Shown piece by piece: positions 1 through 6,504 of a stretch of DNA of 6,551 bases (the stretch's first letter is position 1; the number at the start of each line of letters is the position of its first letter). The translations under genes and the position numbers were made by a program. The notes beneath the pieces are model-generated. The model had not been told where the DNA came from. It saw nothing but the letters and a program-made list of their open reading frames with translations, and ran no database searches. The DNA comes from Clostridiales bacterium (lineage in GTDB: Bacteria > Bacillota_A > Clostridia > Peptostreptococcales > Anaerovoracaceae): the NCBI GenBank assembly GCA_012510935.1, contig JAAZHB010000006.1:1-6551 (forward strand), written 5' to 3'.

Positions 1-2004
1 AAGTCTATCCGTTCACTTGAAACTGGTGTTAACCACCTTAAGATGGACAAATTCGACAAGATGGACATAAGAAATCTTTGGGCATATGTCGATGGAGTTT
101 ACAGAGATGACACAATGTTTGCGATTGTTGAGCTTATTAGACGCGGCGCTTCGCTAGACGATATTCATAAGGTTACAATGTTCACACCTCTTTTCCTTGA
201 ATCATTCCAAAGAATTGTAAAGCTTGAGTTTGTTCTAAAGAATATGATTGGCGACCTTAAGGCTCTTAAGACTGCAAAAATGCTTGGCTTTAGCGATGAA
301 TATATCGCAAGTCTATGGAATATGACAGAAATCGATGTGTACAACATTCGTAAGGAAAACGGTATCGTACCAGCATTTAAGATGGTTGACACACTACATA
401 CCGGCGAGTACATCGCTTACCTATATTCATCATATATGGGCGAAAACGAATCAAGGCTTACTGATAAGAAGAAAATCGTTGTACTTGGAGCTGGTCCTAT
501 CAGAATTGGTCAGGGCGTTGAATTTGACTACTCAACAGTTCATGCTGTACAGACAATCAGAAGAGCTGGTTACGAAGCAATTATCATCAACAACAACCCT
601 GAAACTGTATCAACAGACTACACAACTAGCGATAAGCTTTACTTTGAGCCTCTAACACCTGAAGATGTTATGGCAATTATCGACTTCGAGAAGCCAGATG
701 GCGTAATTGCTTCACTTGGCGGCCAGACAGCTATCAACCTTGCACAGCCACTCATGGATAGAGGCGTTAAGATTATCGGTACTGATTGCGAAGCTATCGA
801 TAAAGCTGAGAACAGAGACAGATTCGAGAAAGTTCTTGCTAATCTAGGAATTCCACAGCCAAAGGGTCGTGCAGTAACTAATATTGAAGATGGTGTTGCT
901 GCTGCAACAGAGATTGGATACCCTGTACTAGTTAGACCTTCGTTCGTACTTGGAGGCAGAGCTATGCAAATTGTTGCTGGAGAAGAACAGTTAAGACATT
1001 ATCTCAAGACTGCTGTAGAGATTGATGAAGACAAGCCAGTTCTTGTAGACAAGTACATTCAGGGAAAAGAGCTAGAAGTTGATGCAATCTGTGATGGCGT
1101 TGATGTATTTGTACCAGGTATTATGGAACTCGTAGAGAGAACCGGAGTTCACTCAGGTGACTCGATAAGTGTATACCCTACTTTCAGCGTTTCAGATAAA
1201 GTGAAGGGTATAATTCTTCAATACACTAAGAAGCTTGGACTTGAGATTGGAATCAAGGGACTTTACAACATCCAGTTCATTGTTGATGAAAATGATGATG
1301 TATATATTATTGAAGTAAACCCTCGTTCATCAAGAACAGTGCCATTCCTTTCAAAGGCAACAGAATATTCACTAGCAGATATCGCAACAGAGGTTATTCT
1401 TGGAAAGTCACTTAAGGAGCAGGGATTCTTTAAGCTCTATCCTGATGAGAAGGAAAGATTCTATGTAAAGGTTCCAGTATTCTCATTCAATAAAATCAAG
1501 GGTCTTGACGCTTACCTATCCCCTGAGATGAAGTCCACAGGTGAAGCAATCGGTTACGATGACAAGCTTAACCGTGCACTCTTCAAGGCACTTCAGGCAA
1601 GTGGACTCAGAGTAAAGAATTACGGGACTGTTTTTGCAACACTAGCAAGAAACGACAAGGAAGAGGCTCTTCCACTAATTCGCAGATTCTACAACCTTGG
1701 TTTCAATATTGAAGCAACACAGGGAACTGCTGAGTTCTTAAAGGAGAACGGAATTAGAACTCGTACATTGAAGAAGCTCTCCGAAGGCAGCTCAGATATT
1801 CTTGACAGAATCAAGAGTGGACAAATTGCATATATAATTAATACAAAGAACATAGGTGATCACAGTCAGGAAACAGACGGAGCAAAGATCAGACTCTGCG
1901 CAACAGAGAACAACTGTACAATCTTTACTTCGCTTGACACAGTAAATGTTCTTCTCGATGTACTTGAGGAGACAACTCTTACAGTTTCAACTATTGACGC
2001 TTAG
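1..2004 (+). CDS. carB: Carbamoyl-phosphate synthase large subunit, C-terminal 667 residues (5' end outside the window)
   Basis: CarB uses two ATP, bicarbonate and ammonia passed from the small subunit CarA to make carbamoyl phosphate in the cytoplasm. The frame is open from base 1 and its first residues (KSIRSLETGV) are internal CarB sequence, so the ATG at 43 is not the start. About 390-400 N-terminal residues, holding the first ATP-grasp domain, are missing against the usual 1060-1070. Counting from base 1, residues 1 to about 160 are the oligomerisation domain. The second ATP-grasp domain follows, with GAGPIRIGQGVEFDY (163-177), GGQTAINLA (240-248) and the metal-binding EVNPRSSR (438-445). 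The MGS-like allosteric domain runs from about 540. It keeps the residues that bind UMP or IMP in the E. coli enzyme: both Thr of ATQGT (573, 576), Lys in LKKLSEG (591-592) and Asn614 in YIINT. Feedback control by UMP is therefore likely. carA is probably just upstream. Identity is certain. Confidence 0.97.
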   Translation, partial: KSIRSLETGVNHLKMDKFDKMDIRNLWAYVDGVYRDDTMFAIVELIRRGASLDDIHKVTMFTPLFLESFQRIVKLEFVLKNMIGDLKALKTAKMLGFSDEYIASLWNMTEIDVYNIRKENGIVPAFKMVDTLHTGEYIAYLYSSYMGENESRLTDKKKIVVLGAGPIRIGQGVEFDYSTVHAVQTIRRAGYEAIIINNNPETVSTDYTTSDKLYFEPLTPEDVMAIIDFEKPDGVIASLGGQTAINLAQPLMDRGVKIIGTDCEAIDKAENRDRFEKVLANLGIPQPKGRAVTNIEDGVAAATEIGYPVLVRPSFVLGGRAMQIVAGEEQLRHYLKTAVEIDEDKPVLVDKYIQGKELEVDAICDGVDVFVPGIMELVERTGVHSGDSISVYPTFSVSDKVKGIILQYTKKLGLEIGIKGLYNIQFIVDENDDVYIIEVNPRSSRTVPFLSKATEYSLADIATEVILGKSLKEQGFFKLYPDEKERFYVKVPVFSFNKIKGLDAYLSPEMKSTGEAIGYDDKLNRALFKALQASGLRVKNYGTVFATLARNDKEEALPLIRRFYNLGFNIEATQGTAEFLKENGIRTRTLKKLSEGSSDILDRIKSGQIAYIINTKNIGDHSQETDGAKIRLCATENNCTIFTSLDTVNVLLDVLEETTLTVSTIDA

Positions 2005-2029
2005 TTCTAATAATTGGAGATAAATATCT

Positions 2030-2776
2030 ATGAAACAGGAAATCTTGACAATTCAAGAGAATATCAAACTGGCAGAAGGTGTGTACCGAATGAAGCTAGC
2101 CGGTGACATCAGCGCAATAACTGCCCCTGGGCAATTCGTCAACATCAAGCTGGACGGTCATTTTCTCAGAAGGCCAATTTCTGTGAACGATATTAGCGAG
2201 AACGAGCTTACTATTATCTACAAGATTCTAGGTGAAGGCACCCGCGAGATGTCTCAATACGAGGTTGGAAGAGAACTGGATGTCCTCACAGGACTTGGCA
2301 ATGGTTATAGCATCGAACTTATGAAAGAAGAAGTTCCTTCGCGTGCAACAATCGCACTAATAGGTGGAGGGGTGGGAATTCCCCCTCTCTACCTTCTTGC
2401 AAAAAAACTTATTGCAAGTGGCGAAAAAGTTCATGTGGTTCTTGGGTTTAATTCGAGTTGCGATGTTTTCTACGAGAAAGAGTTCCTAGCTCTTGGTGCT
2501 GAGGTCTCCGTTGCGACAGCAGATGGAAGTTATGGAATCAAAGGTTTTGTAACAGATATTCTTCCATCAGACTATTCATACTTCTTCACCTGCGGCCCGG
2601 AGCCTATGCTCAAGGCAGTCTACAAAGCTACAACTACCCCTGGGCAGATGAGTTTTGAAGAAAGAATGGGCTGTGGTTTTGGTGCATGTATGGGATGTTC
2701 ATGCAAAACAGTAACTGGATATAAAAGAATTTGCAAAGAGGGCCCTGTTCTAAGGAAGGAGGAAGTTCTATGGTAA
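2030..2776 (+). CDS. pyrK: Dihydroorotate dehydrogenase B, electron-transfer subunit (FAD, 2Fe-2S)
   Basis: PyrK pairs with the class 1B PyrD and passes electrons from its FMN through a 2Fe-2S cluster and FAD to NAD+. The 248-residue product has the ferredoxin-reductase fold in order: an FAD-binding beta-barrel with the RRPIS motif (47-51), an NAD-binding half with GGGVGIPPL (112-120) and CGPEPM (188-193), and a C-terminal cluster of cysteines C215-x4-C220-x2-C223-x11-C235, the PyrK 2Fe-2S ligand pattern. An extra Cys225 lies inside the cluster loop. The length is normal for the family (about 250-260). The ATG is preceded by GGAGA at 2016-2020, nine bases upstream. The gap after carB is 25 bases and the gene overlaps pyrD by seven bases, fitting co-translation of the two subunits. 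Related reductase subunits (HydG/SudB types) share the fold, but the position directly before pyrD settles the call. Confidence 0.96.
   Translation: MKQEILTIQENIKLAEGVYRMKLAGDISAITAPGQFVNIKLDGHFLRRPISVNDISENELTIIYKILGEGTREMSQYEVGRELDVLTGLGNGYSIELMKEEVPSRATIALIGGGVGIPPLYLLAKKLIASGEKVHVVLGFNSSCDVFYEKEFLALGAEVSVATADGSYGIKGFVTDILPSDYSYFFTCGPEPMLKAVYKATTTPGQMSFEERMGCGFGACMGCSCKTVTGYKRICKEGPVLRKEEVLW
2756..2762 (+). promoter_or_regulatory. Ribosome binding site that fixes the pyrD start
   Basis: A full AAGGAGG stands seven bases before the ATG at 2770, inside the last codons of pyrK. This supports ATG 2770 over an in-frame TTG at 2731, which would add 13 residues unlike any PyrD N-terminus and has no such site. 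Placing the site within pyrK also suggests that ribosomes finishing pyrK feed pyrD translation. Confidence 0.85.
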
Positions 2777-3684
2777 ATACGAAAATCAATCTCCTTGGAA
2801 TTGACTTGGATAACCCAATAATTCCTGCATCAGGCACTTTTGGCTATGGCTATGAATTTGCAGAGATTTATGACATTAATTGCCTAGGCACTTTTTCTTT
2901 CAAGGGAACAACCAAAGAGCCTCGATTTGGAAATCCTACTCCGCGAATTGCTGAGTGCGAAGGTGGCCTTTTAAATGCGGTTGGGCTTCAGAACCCTGGC
3001 GTAGAGGCTGTTATTAGCGAAGAGCTCCCTAAGCTTGCTAAAGTTTTTCATAAGCCGGTTATGGCAAATGTCAGCGGCTTTTCCATCGAAGAATATGTTC
3101 ATACTTGCAAGGAACTAGACTCTCAAGAACAGATTGGTTGGCTCGAAGTAAATATTTCTTGCCCAAATGTTCATGGAGGAGGAATGAGTTTCGGTACAGA
3201 TGCCGATGCTGCTGCTTCTGTTGTAAGAGCAGTAAAAAAAGTTACGACAAAGCCAATAATAATTAAACTGACTCCTAATGTTACTGATATTGTTGCAATT
3301 GCAAAAGCATGCGAGGATGCTGGCGCGGACGGAATAAGTCTAATCAACACAATGCTTGGAATGAGAATCAATCTTAAGACAAGAAAACCTCTTATTGCAA
3401 ATACTACCGGCGGATATTCCGGACCTGGAATTTTCCCAGTAGCACTTCGCATGGTATATCAGGTTTCATCCGCAGTCTCCATTCCTGTTATCGGAATGGG
3501 CGGAGTATCAAGCGCGAAGGATGTTATTGAGATGATGATGGCAGGCGCAACCGCAGTTGAAGTGGGCGCAGCTAATCTCGTTGAACCATTTGCGAGCAAG
3601 AATATCATTGAGGAGCTTCCTTTCGTTATGGAAGAATACGGCATTTCAGATCTTTCGAAAATAATTGGAATATCTCACATATAA
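2770..3684 (+). CDS. pyrD: Dihydroorotate dehydrogenase B, catalytic subunit (class 1B, FMN)
   Basis: This enzyme oxidises dihydroorotate to orotate, the fourth step of UMP synthesis, in the cytoplasm; the class 1B form works as a tetramer with PyrK and uses NAD+. The 304-residue product is an FMN-binding TIM barrel of normal family length. Visible motifs are SGTFGYGYEF (21-30), FKGTT with the FMN-contacting Lys45, LNAVGLQNPG (68-77), NISCPNVHGGG (128-138) with the catalytic base Cys131, KLTPNVTDI (Lys166), LINT (191-194), and the phosphate-binding stretches GGYSGPG (214-220) and GMGGVSS (242-248). Cysteine as the base marks class 1 enzymes; class 2 quinone-linked enzymes use serine. The adjoining pyrK makes it class 1B rather than the fumarate-linked class 1A. 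The start at 2770 is chosen for its AAGGAGG and because the protein then begins MVNTKINLLGIDL, as PyrDB proteins do. It overlaps pyrK by seven bases. Confidence 0.96.
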   Translation: MVNTKINLLGIDLDNPIIPASGTFGYGYEFAEIYDINCLGTFSFKGTTKEPRFGNPTPRIAECEGGLLNAVGLQNPGVEAVISEELPKLAKVFHKPVMANVSGFSIEEYVHTCKELDSQEQIGWLEVNISCPNVHGGGMSFGTDADAAASVVRAVKKVTTKPIIIKLTPNVTDIVAIAKACEDAGADGISLINTMLGMRINLKTRKPLIANTTGGYSGPGIFPVALRMVYQVSSAVSIPVIGMGGVSSAKDVIEMMMAGATAVEVGAANLVEPFASKNIIEELPFVMEEYGISDLSKIIGISHI

Positions 3685-3714
3685 ATTAAACTAAGATTTA
3701 AATAAGGAGAAAAA

Positions 3715-4419
3715 ATGGGTAAGGATGTAATAATAGCTTGCGATTTTGATAACGCACAAGATACTTTTCGTTTCCTAGATGCATTCGAGGATAGCAAGCC
3801 TTTTGTAAAAATTGGAATGGAGCTGTTCTACTCTGAAGGTCCCGACATAGTTCGTGAATTAAAGAAAGAAGGACACAAGGTTTTCCTTGATTTGAAACTT
3901 CACGACATTCCTAATACTGTTAGAAAGTCTATGGCTGTTCTAGCAGGTCTTGGCACAGATATTCTTAATTGTCATGCGGGCGGATCTATTCGTATGATGG
4001 AATATGCATTGCAGGGGCTTGAGGAAGGTTGCAAGAGCAGCGAGCGTCCTCTTCTAATCGCAGTTACCCAGCTAACATCAACAGACCAGGATACTCTTGA
4101 AGAAGATCTTCTTATAGAAAAACCAATCGATGATGTTGTAATGCATTACGCACTTAATGCAAAGAAAGCAAATCTTGATGGCGTCGTATGTTCTCCTTTA
4201 GAAGCCAAAAAAGTCCACCTAATGTGTGGAGATGATTTTCTCACGATAACTCCAGGTGTACGATGGGCCGATAGTGCTACCGGTGATCAAAAAAGAGTAA
4301 TGACTCCTTCACAAGCAAAGGAAAATGGTTCAGACTATATCGTTGTAGGTCGTCCAATAACTCAAGCCGAGGATCCAGTAGCTGCATATAAAAGATGTTG
4401 TGATGAATTTATTGGTTAA
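3715..4419 (+). CDS. pyrF: Orotidine 5'-phosphate decarboxylase
   Basis: PyrF removes CO2 from OMP to give UMP, the last step of the pathway, without any cofactor. The 234-residue product matches the usual length of the bacterial short-form (about 230-240) TIM-barrel enzyme. The N-terminal DVIIACDF carries the first active-site aspartate (Asp10) and FVKIGMELF the lysine Lys32. The catalytic D-x-K-x-x-D motif is FLDLKLHD, with Asp59, Lys61 and Asp64. The phosphate-gripping elements are TPGVR (179-183), the mobile loop after it (GDQKRVMTP, 190-198) and VVGRPIT (210-216) with Arg213. The ATG follows AAGGAG (3704-3709) by five bases. The gap after pyrD is 30 bases and shows no terminator, so the gene belongs to the same transcript. 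Confidence 0.97.
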   Translation: MGKDVIIACDFDNAQDTFRFLDAFEDSKPFVKIGMELFYSEGPDIVRELKKEGHKVFLDLKLHDIPNTVRKSMAVLAGLGTDILNCHAGGSIRMMEYALQGLEEGCKSSERPLLIAVTQLTSTDQDTLEEDLLIEKPIDDVVMHYALNAKKANLDGVVCSPLEAKKVHLMCGDDFLTITPGVRWADSATGDQKRVMTPSQAKENGSDYIVVGRPITQAEDPVAAYKRCCDEFIG

Positions 4420-4443
4420 GGATATCTATAAATGCAAATATTA

Positions 4444-4452
4444 TGATATAAT
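4444..4452 (+). promoter_or_regulatory. Candidate internal promoter before pyrE (extended -10)
   Basis: The 65-base gap between pyrF and pyrE contains TGATATAAT, a perfect extended -10 element (TG, one base, TATAAT). A start site would fall near 4458-4460, about 25 bases before the pyrE ATG, which leaves room for the AAGGAG at 4472-4477. No good -35 hexamer is seen at 16-18 bases upstream; extended -10 promoters can work without one. AT-rich gaps often contain TATAAT by chance, so this is a candidate only. If real, it would let pyrE and the pyrB fusion be transcribed apart from the upstream genes. Confidence 0.35.
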
Positions 4453-4484
4453 CAAGTACTGTATTTTAATGAAGGAGACAGACT

Positions 4485-5123
4485 ATGGATTTAAACAGAA
4501 TAATTGCTAAGGATCTTTTAAGAATTGAAGCTCTTATTTTCAGACCTAATGACCCTTTTACATGGGCGAGCGGTATTAAGAGCCCTGTCTATTGTGACAA
4601 CAGGCTTACTCTTACAGATGTTACAGCAAGAAATGATGTTGAGAATGCACTTGCGCAATTAATCAAAGAGAATTACCCTGAAACTGAAGTTGTTATGGGA
4701 ACATCTACTGCTGGTATAGCGCATGCGGCTATTGTTGGTCATATTCTTGATTTACCAATGGGGTATGTCCGCTCAAGTGCGAAAGATCATGGTAGGAATA
4801 ATCAAATAGAGGGAAAGCTTCTTCCAGGTCAGAAGGTTGTTGTTGTTGAGGACCTCATATCAACTGGCGGATCAGTAATTGAAGTTGTGAATGTTCTTCG
4901 CGATGCTGGGGCTGAAGTGCTCGGAGTAGTATCGATTTTCACATACGGTCTACAGAAAGGTCTTGATCGTATGGCTAACGCTGATGTAAAGAACGTCTCC
5001 CTTACGAACTTGGATTCAATTGCTGAGGTAGCAGCTGAAGAAGGATATATTTCTAAGGATGCAGTTGCAAAGGTTCTTGCATTTAGAGCTGACCCATCAG
5101 ATGAAAGTTGGATTACAGCATAG
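4485..5123 (+). CDS. pyrE: Orotate phosphoribosyltransferase
   Basis: PyrE transfers ribose 5-phosphate from PRPP to orotate, giving OMP for PyrF. The product has 212 residues, normal for bacterial PyrE, and is a type I phosphoribosyltransferase that acts as a dimer. The PRPP-binding signature is VVVVEDLISTGGS at 118-130, with acidic Glu122-Asp123 and the STGGS phosphate loop. The N-terminal orotate-side hood includes FTWASGIKSPVYCDNR (25-40), a stretch typical of PyrE rather than of purine phosphoribosyltransferases. The flexible catalytic loop is YVRSSAKDHGRNNQIEG (94-110), which closes over the partner subunit's active site. The ATG is seven bases after AAGGAG (4472-4477). Its position directly after pyrF, the next enzyme of the pathway, is common in pyr operons. 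Confidence 0.97.
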   Translation: MDLNRIIAKDLLRIEALIFRPNDPFTWASGIKSPVYCDNRLTLTDVTARNDVENALAQLIKENYPETEVVMGTSTAGIAHAAIVGHILDLPMGYVRSSAKDHGRNNQIEGKLLPGQKVVVVEDLISTGGSVIEVVNVLRDAGAEVLGVVSIFTYGLQKGLDRMANADVKNVSLTNLDSIAEVAAEEGYISKDAVAKVLAFRADPSDESWITA

Positions 5124-5192: not shown

Positions 5193-6356
5193 ATGAAAAG
5201 TTTAATTGATATCAGAGATTTAAGTGTGAATGAAATTTCTCAGCTTATTCATGTAGCTAAAGACATCATTGCAAGGCCAGATTATTATAGTCATGCTTGC
5301 GAAGGCAAGAAGCTTGCCACTCTATTCTTTGAGCCTTCAACAAGAACACGTCTAAGTCACGAGGCCGCTATGTATGAATTAGGTGGCCAGGTTCTTTCAG
5401 TAACAGACTCTGCATCATCATCTGCATCAAAAGGTGAAAGTGTAGCTGATACTGCTAAAGTCATTAGTTGCTATGCAGATATAATTGCAATAAGACATCC
5501 CGCTGAAGGAGCTGCGCTTGTAGCTGGCGAGAATGCGACTGTACCAGTTATTAATGCTGGTGATGGTGGACATTCACACCCAACTCAAACACTTGGAGAC
5601 CTTCTCACAATTCATCGTGAGAAAGGCCGACTTGACCATCTAGTAATTGGTCTTTGCGGCGACCTTCGTTATGGAAGAACTGTACACTCACTTGTATCTG
5701 CTCTTAGCAAATACCCAGGTGTCAGATTCATATTTGTAAGCCCAGAAGAGCTTCAAATTCCTGATTATATTAAGAATGACATTCTTAATCCGAATCAGAT
5801 TCCATTCTATGAGACATCATCTCTAGAAGAAGCTCTACCAGTTCTTGATGTTCTGTATATGACAAGAATACAGAAAGAACGTTTTGATAATATTGAGAAG
5901 TACGAGGTACTAAAGGACTCATACCGTATTACTTACGATATGATTAATGGTCGCTATGGAAATACAGCTGCTCCAAGAGAGATGTGTATTTTGCATCCTC
6001 TTCCAAGGGTAAACGAAATAGCTGCTGATGTTGATAAAGATGCTCGTGCTTGTTACTTTAAGCAAGTTGAAAATGGTAAATATATGCGTATGGCCTTAAT
6101 ACTTAAGTTGCTTTATGACCATGACTATAAGTGCCAGATTAATGACAATCGCAAGATTCTGACATCTTCTGAAATCCTTGATATTAGACAAGATATTAAG
6201 GGACTCGATTGTGCAGGTGGCGTTTTCACAAATCAAGTTCATTGTCATAATGCTCATTGCATTACTCAAACAGAGCAAGATCTTGAACAGAAATTTATTA
6301 TTAGGGAAGGTTCAGGCATCAAGTGCCTATATTGCGAATCAGAGATTAATCAATAA
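5193..6356 (+). CDS. pyrB: Aspartate carbamoyltransferase fused to the zinc domain of regulatory chain PyrI
   Basis: The enzyme joins carbamoyl phosphate to aspartate, the committed step of the pathway. Residues 1 to about 313 are a full catalytic chain. STRTR (49-53) binds carbamoyl phosphate; Ser76 and Lys80 match the 80s-loop Ser/Lys supplied by the neighbouring subunit. Arg101, HPTQT (129-133), YGRTVHSL with Arg162, TRIQ with Arg225 and Gln227, and HPLPR (268-272) match the E. coli active site. Chains of this type usually stop near residue 310. Here about 74 more residues follow, with C351-x4-C356 and C378-x2-C381, the spacing of the PyrI zinc ligands (E. coli 109, 114, 138, 141), within a PyrI-like context (CITQTEQ ... 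KCLYC). PyrI's N-terminal nucleotide-binding domain, about 100 residues, is absent. The ATG lies six bases after AAGGAG (5181-5186). The catalytic call is certain; the zinc-domain call is strong. Confidence 0.95.
   Translation: MKSLIDIRDLSVNEISQLIHVAKDIIARPDYYSHACEGKKLATLFFEPSTRTRLSHEAAMYELGGQVLSVTDSASSSASKGESVADTAKVISCYADIIAIRHPAEGAALVAGENATVPVINAGDGGHSHPTQTLGDLLTIHREKGRLDHLVIGLCGDLRYGRTVHSLVSALSKYPGVRFIFVSPEELQIPDYIKNDILNPNQIPFYETSSLEEALPVLDVLYMTRIQKERFDNIEKYEVLKDSYRITYDMINGRYGNTAAPREMCILHPLPRVNEIAADVDKDARACYFKQVENGKYMRMALILKLLYDHDYKCQINDNRKILTSSEILDIRQDIKGLDCAGGVFTNQVHCHNAHCITQTEQDLEQKFIIREGSGIKCLYCESEINQ
6131..6353 (+). other. PyrI-like zinc-binding tail within the pyrB fusion
   Basis: This segment encodes residues from about 314 to 387 of the fusion. 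Its first 30 or so residues (INDNRKILTSSEIL and onward) form a linker that may preserve the last strand of the lost PyrI allosteric domain. The rest lines up with the PyrI zinc domain, ligands Cys351, Cys356, Cys378 and Cys381. In E. coli that domain clamps the regulatory chain onto the catalytic chain, so the fused copy could fold back on its own or a neighbouring catalytic subunit. It shows no site for ATP or CTP. No separate pyrI lies downstream in the window. Confidence 0.8.
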
Positions 6357-6459: not shown

Positions 6460-6504
6460 ATGGTGTTGGTGATGGAAATAACATTTCATCGTCAGCACCA
6501 TTTT
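6460..6504 (+). other. Second hairpin after the operon, possible backup terminator or small RNA end
   Basis: Bases 6460-6474 pair with 6487-6501 in a 15-pair stem containing three G-U wobbles, around a 12-base loop, followed by TTTT at 6501-6504 and then AGTTC. The wobbles pair only in + strand RNA; on the - strand they would be A-C mismatches, which favours a + strand transcript. It could be a tandem terminator for read-through from the pyr operon or the end of a small RNA starting in the AT-rich stretch before it. The rest of 6420-6551 holds A-runs and no convincing gene. Confidence 0.5.

What the first reader, a model, noticed from the sequence alone, without database searches (positions are those of the whole stretch)
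5193..6356. PyrB fused to a PyrI remnant that kept the zinc domain and lost the allosteric domain
Seen: a full catalytic chain followed in the same frame by C-x4-C ... C-x2-C in a PyrI-like context, with only about 37 residues between the catalytic end and the first ligand cysteine. Known: PyrI normally has an approximately 100-residue nucleotide-binding domain before the zinc domain, and full-length PyrB-PyrI fusions have been described, for example in Thermotoga maritima. Inference: this is a fusion in which the allosteric domain was deleted, giving a zinc-stabilised aspartate carbamoyltransferase without nucleotide control, possibly with an unusual subunit arrangement.
Basis: partly seen in the sequence, partly recalled or inferred. 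Interest (0 to 1): 0.7.

Follow-up and report, generated by a model that had tools for sequence, protein, structure and literature searches.

The report
Aspartate transcarbamoylase with zinc-only regulatory tail
A first-step enzyme of pyrimidine synthesis carries, fused to its end, only the zinc-binding half of its usual regulatory partner and not the half that senses nucleotides; related bacteria share this stripped-down form, which offers a natural test of what each half of a textbook allosteric enzyme is for.

Summary
Confirmed. ORF 5193-6356 (387 aa) is a complete E. coli-type PyrB chain, a long, probably disordered linker and a PyrI zinc domain (PF02748, 30.4 bits, cut-off 23.4). No PyrI nucleotide domain (PF01948) was found in it. 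The form is not unique: 108 of 120 listed database hits, the window's own included, carry the same three domains. In 391 sampled genomes of one class, 186 have this PyrB type: 155 with both PyrI domains in the genome, 19 fused zinc-only, 2 with a separate zinc-only PyrI, 9 catalytic-only (one distant), 1 cut. PF01948 was detected in 0 of 29 fused genomes. Fused chains mostly keep the residue that holds the zinc domain (E. coli Glu109) but have mostly lost interface residues that are nearly invariant beside full PyrI. I infer catalytic trimers with docked zinc domains, no nucleotide site and no T state. Zinc content, stoichiometry and kinetics are untested; the number of origins is open. Ten literature searches listed no description: an apparently undescribed variant of a known enzyme.

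The parts
5193..6356 (+). fused pyrB + PyrI zinc domain, 387 aa, stop at 6354-6356
5196..6110 (+). catalytic chain (residues 2-306)
5505..5507 (+). Glu105 = E. coli Glu109, partner of zinc-domain Asn111
   Evidence: alignment; Glu kept in 66 of 77 fused, 66 of 66 full-PyrI, 0 of 8 catalytic-only chains; Glu109-Asn111 bond in passages of PMC6056424
5667..5672 (+). Arg159-Tyr160 = E. coli Lys164-Tyr165; position 160 is Phe in 65 of 66 full-PyrI chains
5886..5900 (+). residues 232-236 (DNIEK), E. coli 240s loop region; mostly FNE-x-D in full-PyrI chains
6114..6242 (+). linker, residues 308-350, mostly predicted disordered (311-342 pLDDT under 50)
   Evidence: length 43
6231..6353 (+). PyrI zinc domain PF02748 (residues 347-387)
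6243..6260 (+). first zinc ligand pair C351-x4-C356, with Asn353 at the place of E. coli Asn111
6324..6335 (+). second zinc ligand pair C378-x2-C381
6382..6411 (+). terminator-like hairpin after the fused gene; no pyrI-like ORF between the fused gene and the end of the window
1..5123 (+). upstream pyrimidine genes in the same orientation: carB (3' part), pyrK, pyrD, pyrF, pyrE
   Evidence: the pyrK matches stay below their models' cut-offs

Best explanation
It is an aspartate transcarbamoylase of the E. coli catalytic type in which the regulatory chain has been cut down to its zinc domain and joined to the catalytic chain. SHOWN: complete catalytic chain, PyrI-type zinc domain with four cysteines, no nucleotide-binding domain detected in the protein or in 29 related genomes with the fusion, the bond partners Glu109 (catalytic) and Asn111 (zinc domain) mostly kept, and the positions of the E. 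coli 164-165/236-240 interface mostly changed. INFERRED: the zinc domain binds zinc and docks on a catalytic chain at the same face as in E. coli, stabilising the catalytic trimer; with no nucleotide domain there is no regulatory dimer to bridge two trimers, so the enzyme works as a trimer (or at least without the T state), with no response to ATP, CTP or UTP, and with the pathway controlled elsewhere.
For: Domain content. The tail profile finds 12 PyrI sequences in the PDB, best 1.2e-08; the two other hits are insignificant. The tail model's structural matches are PyrI residues about 96-154. PyrI nucleotide domain detected in 0 of 29 fused genomes (11, 19, G001 in both) and in 3 of 3 unfused controls. 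In 37 aligned tails (window, 24 fused, 10 full PyrI, 2 split) the columns C, N111, C, E, C, C are invariant; over all 77 fused tails Asn is kept in 75 and the Glu in 77 (fused rows were picked by the cysteine motif). Glu109 equivalent: 66 of 77 fused (7 more have Asp), 66 of 66 full-PyrI, 0 of 8 catalytic-only. Interface positions: Glu234 kept in 17 of 77 fused against 66 of 66 full-PyrI; Phe160 in 9 of 77 against 65 of 66. Tail dN/dS about 0.05-0.18 in 4 of 6 pairs, not computable in 2. Zinc-only state without fusion: G158 and G296, and a 67-aa database protein named from Clostridium colicanis.
Against: No biochemistry exists here. Only a monomer was predicted, so docking and oligomer state are untested. 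Relatedness: only one well-supported independent fused/full pair exists in the tree, so the residue contrast cannot be given a p-value. The 8 catalytic-only chains (9 with the distant G339) show that this PyrB type can do without a zinc domain. 11 of 77 fused chains have changed Glu109 (7 Asp, 2 Ala, 2 Pro), and 2 of 77 (G027, G064) have Ser in place of Asn111. The window's own genome is unknown and might hold a separate PyrI.
Confidence: 0.7

Rival explanations
1. The zinc domains still bridge two catalytic trimers through the second (r1-c4 type) contact, giving a hexamer that is cooperative for aspartate but blind to nucleotides.
For: The zinc domain in E. coli touches both trimers (recalled); the long linker (43 aa) would allow a swap to another chain.
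Against: The positions of the E. coli interface (160, 232-236) are diverged in most fused chains, in the window too, and look like those of catalytic-only chains.
Confidence: 0.15
2. The zinc tail is a slowly decaying remnant without function.
For: Linker disordered; by dN the tail evolves faster than the catalytic part in 5 of the 6 pairs computed; in one genome (G046) only a tail fragment was found.
Against: Asn in 75 and Glu in 77 of 77 fused tails besides the four Cys by which they were picked; the only E. coli-type catalytic chains with tails of 50 or more residues are those with the intact motif; dN/dS well below 1 where computable; the same zinc-only state also exists unfused.
Confidence: 0.08
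3. The zinc domain was kept for a new partner (for example another pathway enzyme or nucleic acid) rather than for the catalytic trimer.
For: Not tested; zinc ribbons often bind partners (general knowledge).
Against: The bond pair with the catalytic chain is mostly conserved.
Confidence: 0.05

Closest known systems
E. coli-type aspartate transcarbamoylase (PyrB + PyrI)
   Same: catalytic chain (TIGR00670), PyrI zinc domain, Glu109/Asn111 pair
   Different: one chain instead of two; nucleotide-binding domain (PF01948) missing; interface residues changed
Full-length PyrB-PyrI fusion (NF009916; Thermotoga maritima, Chen et al. 1998, seen only as a title in the reference list of PMC4581275)
   Same: PyrB and PyrI sequence in one chain
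   Different: that model is 525 positions long; the window scores 121 bits against a cut-off of 800 and covers only profile positions 9-331
Laboratory complex of E. coli catalytic trimers with the isolated zinc-domain peptide of PyrI (Schachman group; recalled, not found in the held library)
   Same: catalytic trimer plus zinc domain without nucleotide domain
   Different: made in the test tube from fragments and not fused; the present ones are natural
Catalytic-only trimeric ATCase (B. subtilis type)
   Same: no nucleotide regulation expected
   Different: the more distant chains of genomes without PyrI_C are about 30-35% identical and have no zinc tail; that they are of B. subtilis type is by reading, not by profile

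Membership tests
Aspartate carbamoyltransferase, catalytic (TIGR00670) | profile match over the curated cut-off | tested here: met
   325.7 bits, cut-off 236.95
Aspartate carbamoyltransferase, catalytic (TIGR00670) | active-site residues (E. coli positions recalled) | tested here: met
   S49 T50 R51 T52 S77 K80 R101 H129 Q132 R162 R225 Q227 L270 P271
PyrI zinc domain (PF02748) | profile match over the gathering score, four Cys | tested here: met
   30.4 bits, cut-off 23.4; C351, C356, C378, C381
PyrI zinc domain (PF02748) | fold of PyrI zinc domain | tested here: met
PyrI zinc domain (PF02748) | binds zinc | not testable with these tools
   -
Full PyrI regulatory subunit (TIGR00240, PF01948) | nucleotide-binding domain and full-length match | tested here: not met
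   TIGR00240 21.7 bits, cut-off 148.55; no PF01948 match listed up to E 10
Full-length PyrB-PyrI fusion (NF009916) | match over the cut-off along a 525-position model with both PyrI domains | tested here: not met
   121.3 bits, cut-off 800, positions 9-331 of 525
Unregulated trimeric ATCase | trimer, no nucleotide effect | not testable with these tools
   -

The most novel reading that the evidence does not exclude
Clostridia have repeatedly dismantled the textbook allosteric enzyme in the same way: the nucleotide-sensing half of PyrI is deleted (still as a separate mini-gene in two lineages, as a fusion in many), the zinc half is kept as a structural clamp on the catalytic trimer, and the trimer-trimer interface then decays. 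The zinc domain is thus a module with its own selected function, and these enzymes are natural versions of the zinc-peptide/trimer complex made in the laboratory, fixed in an always-active state.
Probability: 0.5. Interest if true: 0.72.

Novelty: new variant of a known kind. Interest (0 to 1): 0.6.

Why it matters
Aspartate transcarbamoylase is a model of allostery, but in E. coli the jobs of the two PyrI halves are hard to separate because both sit in one chain that also builds the dodecamer. Natural enzymes that kept one half and dropped the other, in both fused and split form and with relatives in full form, allow the question 'what does the zinc domain do by itself?' to be answered by comparing homologues. 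If the fused enzyme is a stable, nucleotide-blind trimer, it also shows a route by which a large allosteric assembly is lost, and gives a compact unregulated enzyme for pyrimidine engineering.

Tried and rejected
Misassembly of the window: rejected, a cluster with an identical representative lies on 12 contigs. Separate pyrI in the host: not testable, no genome held; not detected in fused relatives.

Single origin of the fusion: the quick tree (152 rows) needs 9 changes of the fused label, 2 forced by starred branches; the 111-row tree 7 and 3; the tree without the nine interface and docking columns 10 and 1. But an AU test on 45 rows chosen by me does not reject all fused rows as one clade (p 0.117) nor the two big fused groups together (p 0.53). 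So the count of origins is open. The one-clade test on 111 rows did not finish. The two split zinc-only genes each sit beside a full-PyrI relative on starred branches, so those two losses look separate. The window falls in a supported 58-row group (57 fused, 1 full), but in no starred group.

'Zinc domain is always needed by this PyrB type': rejected; 8 genomes (G386, G314, G159, G136, G203, G297, G182, G105) have E. coli-type PyrB with no zinc domain detected, G339 is a more distant one, G232 is cut by a contig end.

'Asn111 is invariant': true of the 37 tails aligned, but not of all: G027 and G064, found later, have Ser.

Transcription control instead of allostery: PyrR (NF003549) over cut-off in 14 of 29 fused genomes (plus one weak partial hit at a contig end) and in 14 of 30 full-PyrI genomes, no difference. 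No Rfam match at gathering score in the window.

PF02748 at E 0.001 missed 4 of the 19 fused genes of the sample (G027, G064, G311, G049), found only by the whole-protein search. G230 was a weak hit below cut-off with no E. coli-type PyrB and was dropped; G046 has only a tail fragment and was not counted as fused. Of the 217 sampled genomes without PyrI_C, 19 were searched for their PyrB: 17 matched, one of them fused (G027), the other 16 with distant chains, at least one of which (L126) reads like ornithine transcarbamoylase.

Rows dropped or left out: of the 120 listed database hits 57 were aligned; P0002 is represented by the window row, and P0003 and P0103 were left out of the trees; the tree used 17 of the 47 fused database rows; L044 and L049 (long branches) were left out; two truncated loci and the 7 database rows without a zinc tail were counted as neither state; the tail alignment left out L096, a near copy of L094. 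Fused database rows were picked because they resemble the window, so proportions among them are biased.

Literature: ten searches listed no paper on a zinc-only PyrB fusion; most subscription journals are not held. Seen: passages of PMC6056424 and of PMC4581275. The Thermotoga paper PMC107728 is not held.

Corrections made on checking: Asn111 counted over all fused tails; the PyrR remark on the second fused group now includes G004.

Full report

How common it is. Of the 120 best database proteins listed (8000 scored, the cap), 108 carry both catalytic domains plus PyrI_C, the window's own cluster among them. Of 44 related loci from titled genomes, 11 are fused, 29 have a separate pyrI, and 4 are cut or partial. 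The titles of the fused ones are Clostridia and relatives, many from rumen or gut, with one 'Bacteroidales' on a 3-kb contig (L040). In an even sample of 391 genomes of the class of G001 (a Clostridiales record; the class name is not told), the E. coli-type PyrB is found in 186 at E 1e-60, PyrI_C in 174 and the PyrI nucleotide domain in 155. Sorting the 186: 155 with both PyrI domains in the genome, 19 fused zinc-only (15 seen by PF02748, plus G027, G064, G311, G049 seen by the whole-protein search), 2 split zinc-only (G158, G296), 8 catalytic-only plus the more distant G339, and G232 cut by a contig end. In 29 different fused genomes (11, 19, one shared) the PyrI nucleotide domain was detected in none at E 0.001. 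Many are draft genomes, so absence in any single one is weak, but 0 of 29 is not.

The split form. In G158 and G296 the pyrB stop codon overlaps the start of a tiny gene (TAATG) with the PyrI zinc domain only, 67 and 58 residues. The G158 protein starts MLKIDSIKHEII, like the start of full PyrI in its tree neighbour Clostridium homopropionicum (MLNIDSIKDGIV), then jumps to the zinc domain: an internal deletion of the nucleotide domain. A 67-residue database protein named from Clostridium colicanis differs from it by one residue, and a second cluster is 81% identical with the same kind of junction. The search for such short proteins needs shared exact words, so this is not a census. A repeat search with E up to 10 found no convincing nucleotide domain in these two genomes (best 0.54, below cut-off).

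How it probably works. In the E. coli enzyme, Asn111 of the zinc domain bonds Glu109 of the catalytic chain in the R state, Lys164 and Glu239 make different bonds in the T and R states, and mutation of Asn111, Lys164 or Glu239 removes cooperativity and nucleotide effects (passages of PMC6056424). That Tyr165 and Asp236 also lie at the contact between trimers is recalled. I compared catalytic chains by state. A scan of all window positions for columns conserved in fused and full-PyrI chains but lost in catalytic-only chains returned five (22, 95, 105, 127, 192), and one of them is Glu105, the Glu109 equivalent: 66 of 77 fused (7 more have Asp), 66 of 66 full-PyrI, 0 of 8 catalytic-only. His127 behaves alike (77 of 77, 66 of 66, 0 of 8), though E. 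coli has Asn there. The partner Asn is kept in 75 of 77 fused tails. The opposite scan, for columns that differ between fused and full-PyrI chains, returned six (160, 226, 232, 233, 234, 236), five of them at the equivalents of E. coli 165 and 236-240: Phe160 kept in 9 of 77 fused against 65 of 66; Glu234 in 17 of 77 against 66 of 66; a hydrophobic residue at 232 in 9 of 77 against 66 of 66. The window itself has Tyr160 and DNIEK in the loop. Catalytic-only chains also lack the full-PyrI pattern. So fused chains keep the zinc-docking partner and have mostly let go of the trimer-trimer interface. The simplest mechanism is a catalytic trimer with a zinc domain docked on each chain, without the T state and without nucleotide control. 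Nine fused rows still have Phe160, and one of them, P0024, has an unchanged FNEED loop and falls among full-PyrI rows, as expected of a recent fusion in which the interface has not yet decayed; support for its place is weak.

Limits. The contrast counts related sequences. On supported branches only one independent fused/full pair exists, so no significance can be claimed. An AU test does not reject a single origin of all fused rows (p 0.117). No multimer prediction, zinc binding or kinetics could be run. Tail dN/dS values (about 0.05-0.18 in four of six pairs, not computable in two) point to selection on the tail but come from small segments. The window's linker, 43 residues, is the longest measured; its meaning is unknown.

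Comparison with the known. It is a member of the E. coli-type catalytic family and carries a PyrI zinc domain; it is not a full PyrI and not the full-length PyrB-PyrI fusion (membership table). A review divides prokaryotic ATCases into dodecamers with dihydroorotase, dodecamers with regulatory dimers 'separated or fused together', and bare trimers (passage of PMC4581275). A zinc-only form fits none of these three as described. The nearest functional parallel I know is the laboratory complex of E. coli catalytic trimers with an isolated zinc-domain fragment (recalled; not in the held library). Domain databases already mark the three domains on these proteins, so the architecture is visible in public data, but ten literature searches listed no paper describing it.

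Noticed in passing
L107 (G158) 1986-2186 and L108 (G296) 2591-2764: Separate genes of 67 and 58 aa encoding only the PyrI zinc domain, start codon overlapping the pyrB stop; G158 keeps the first dozen residues of PyrI before the deletion.
   Followed up: yes
L109 (G046) about 1172-1339: A zinc-tail fragment (CTNPRC...CLYC) lies next to what reads like a DNA methylase and a following gene (by reading, not tested); no PyrB match at E 0.001 in that genome. Interrupted gene or chimeric contig.
   Followed up: partly
P0016, P0023, P0024: Fused zinc-only proteins whose Phe160 (and in P0024 the whole FNEED loop) is still of full-PyrI type: possible recent fusions.
   Followed up: partly
L137-L143, L146: E. 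coli-type PyrB without any detected zinc domain, with Ser or Ala at the Glu109 place; in most the next gene downstream reads like pyrK (by reading).
   Followed up: partly
G155, G178, G259, G278, G295, G365, G383, G311, G049, G004: In the second, more distant fused group PyrR was found in 1 of 10 genomes (G004 only), so most may lack both allosteric and PyrR control. G311 and G049 are placed in this group by similarity, not by the tree.
   Followed up: no
L111 (G027), L136 (G064): Fused chains with Ser instead of Asn111 in the zinc domain although Glu109 is kept.
   Followed up: no
L010: A full-PyrI type catalytic chain (FNEED loop) that falls inside a fused clade; misplacement, exchange or regain.
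   Followed up: no
window 6460-6501: Second terminator-like hairpin, 18 pairs, downstream of the operon end.
   Followed up: no
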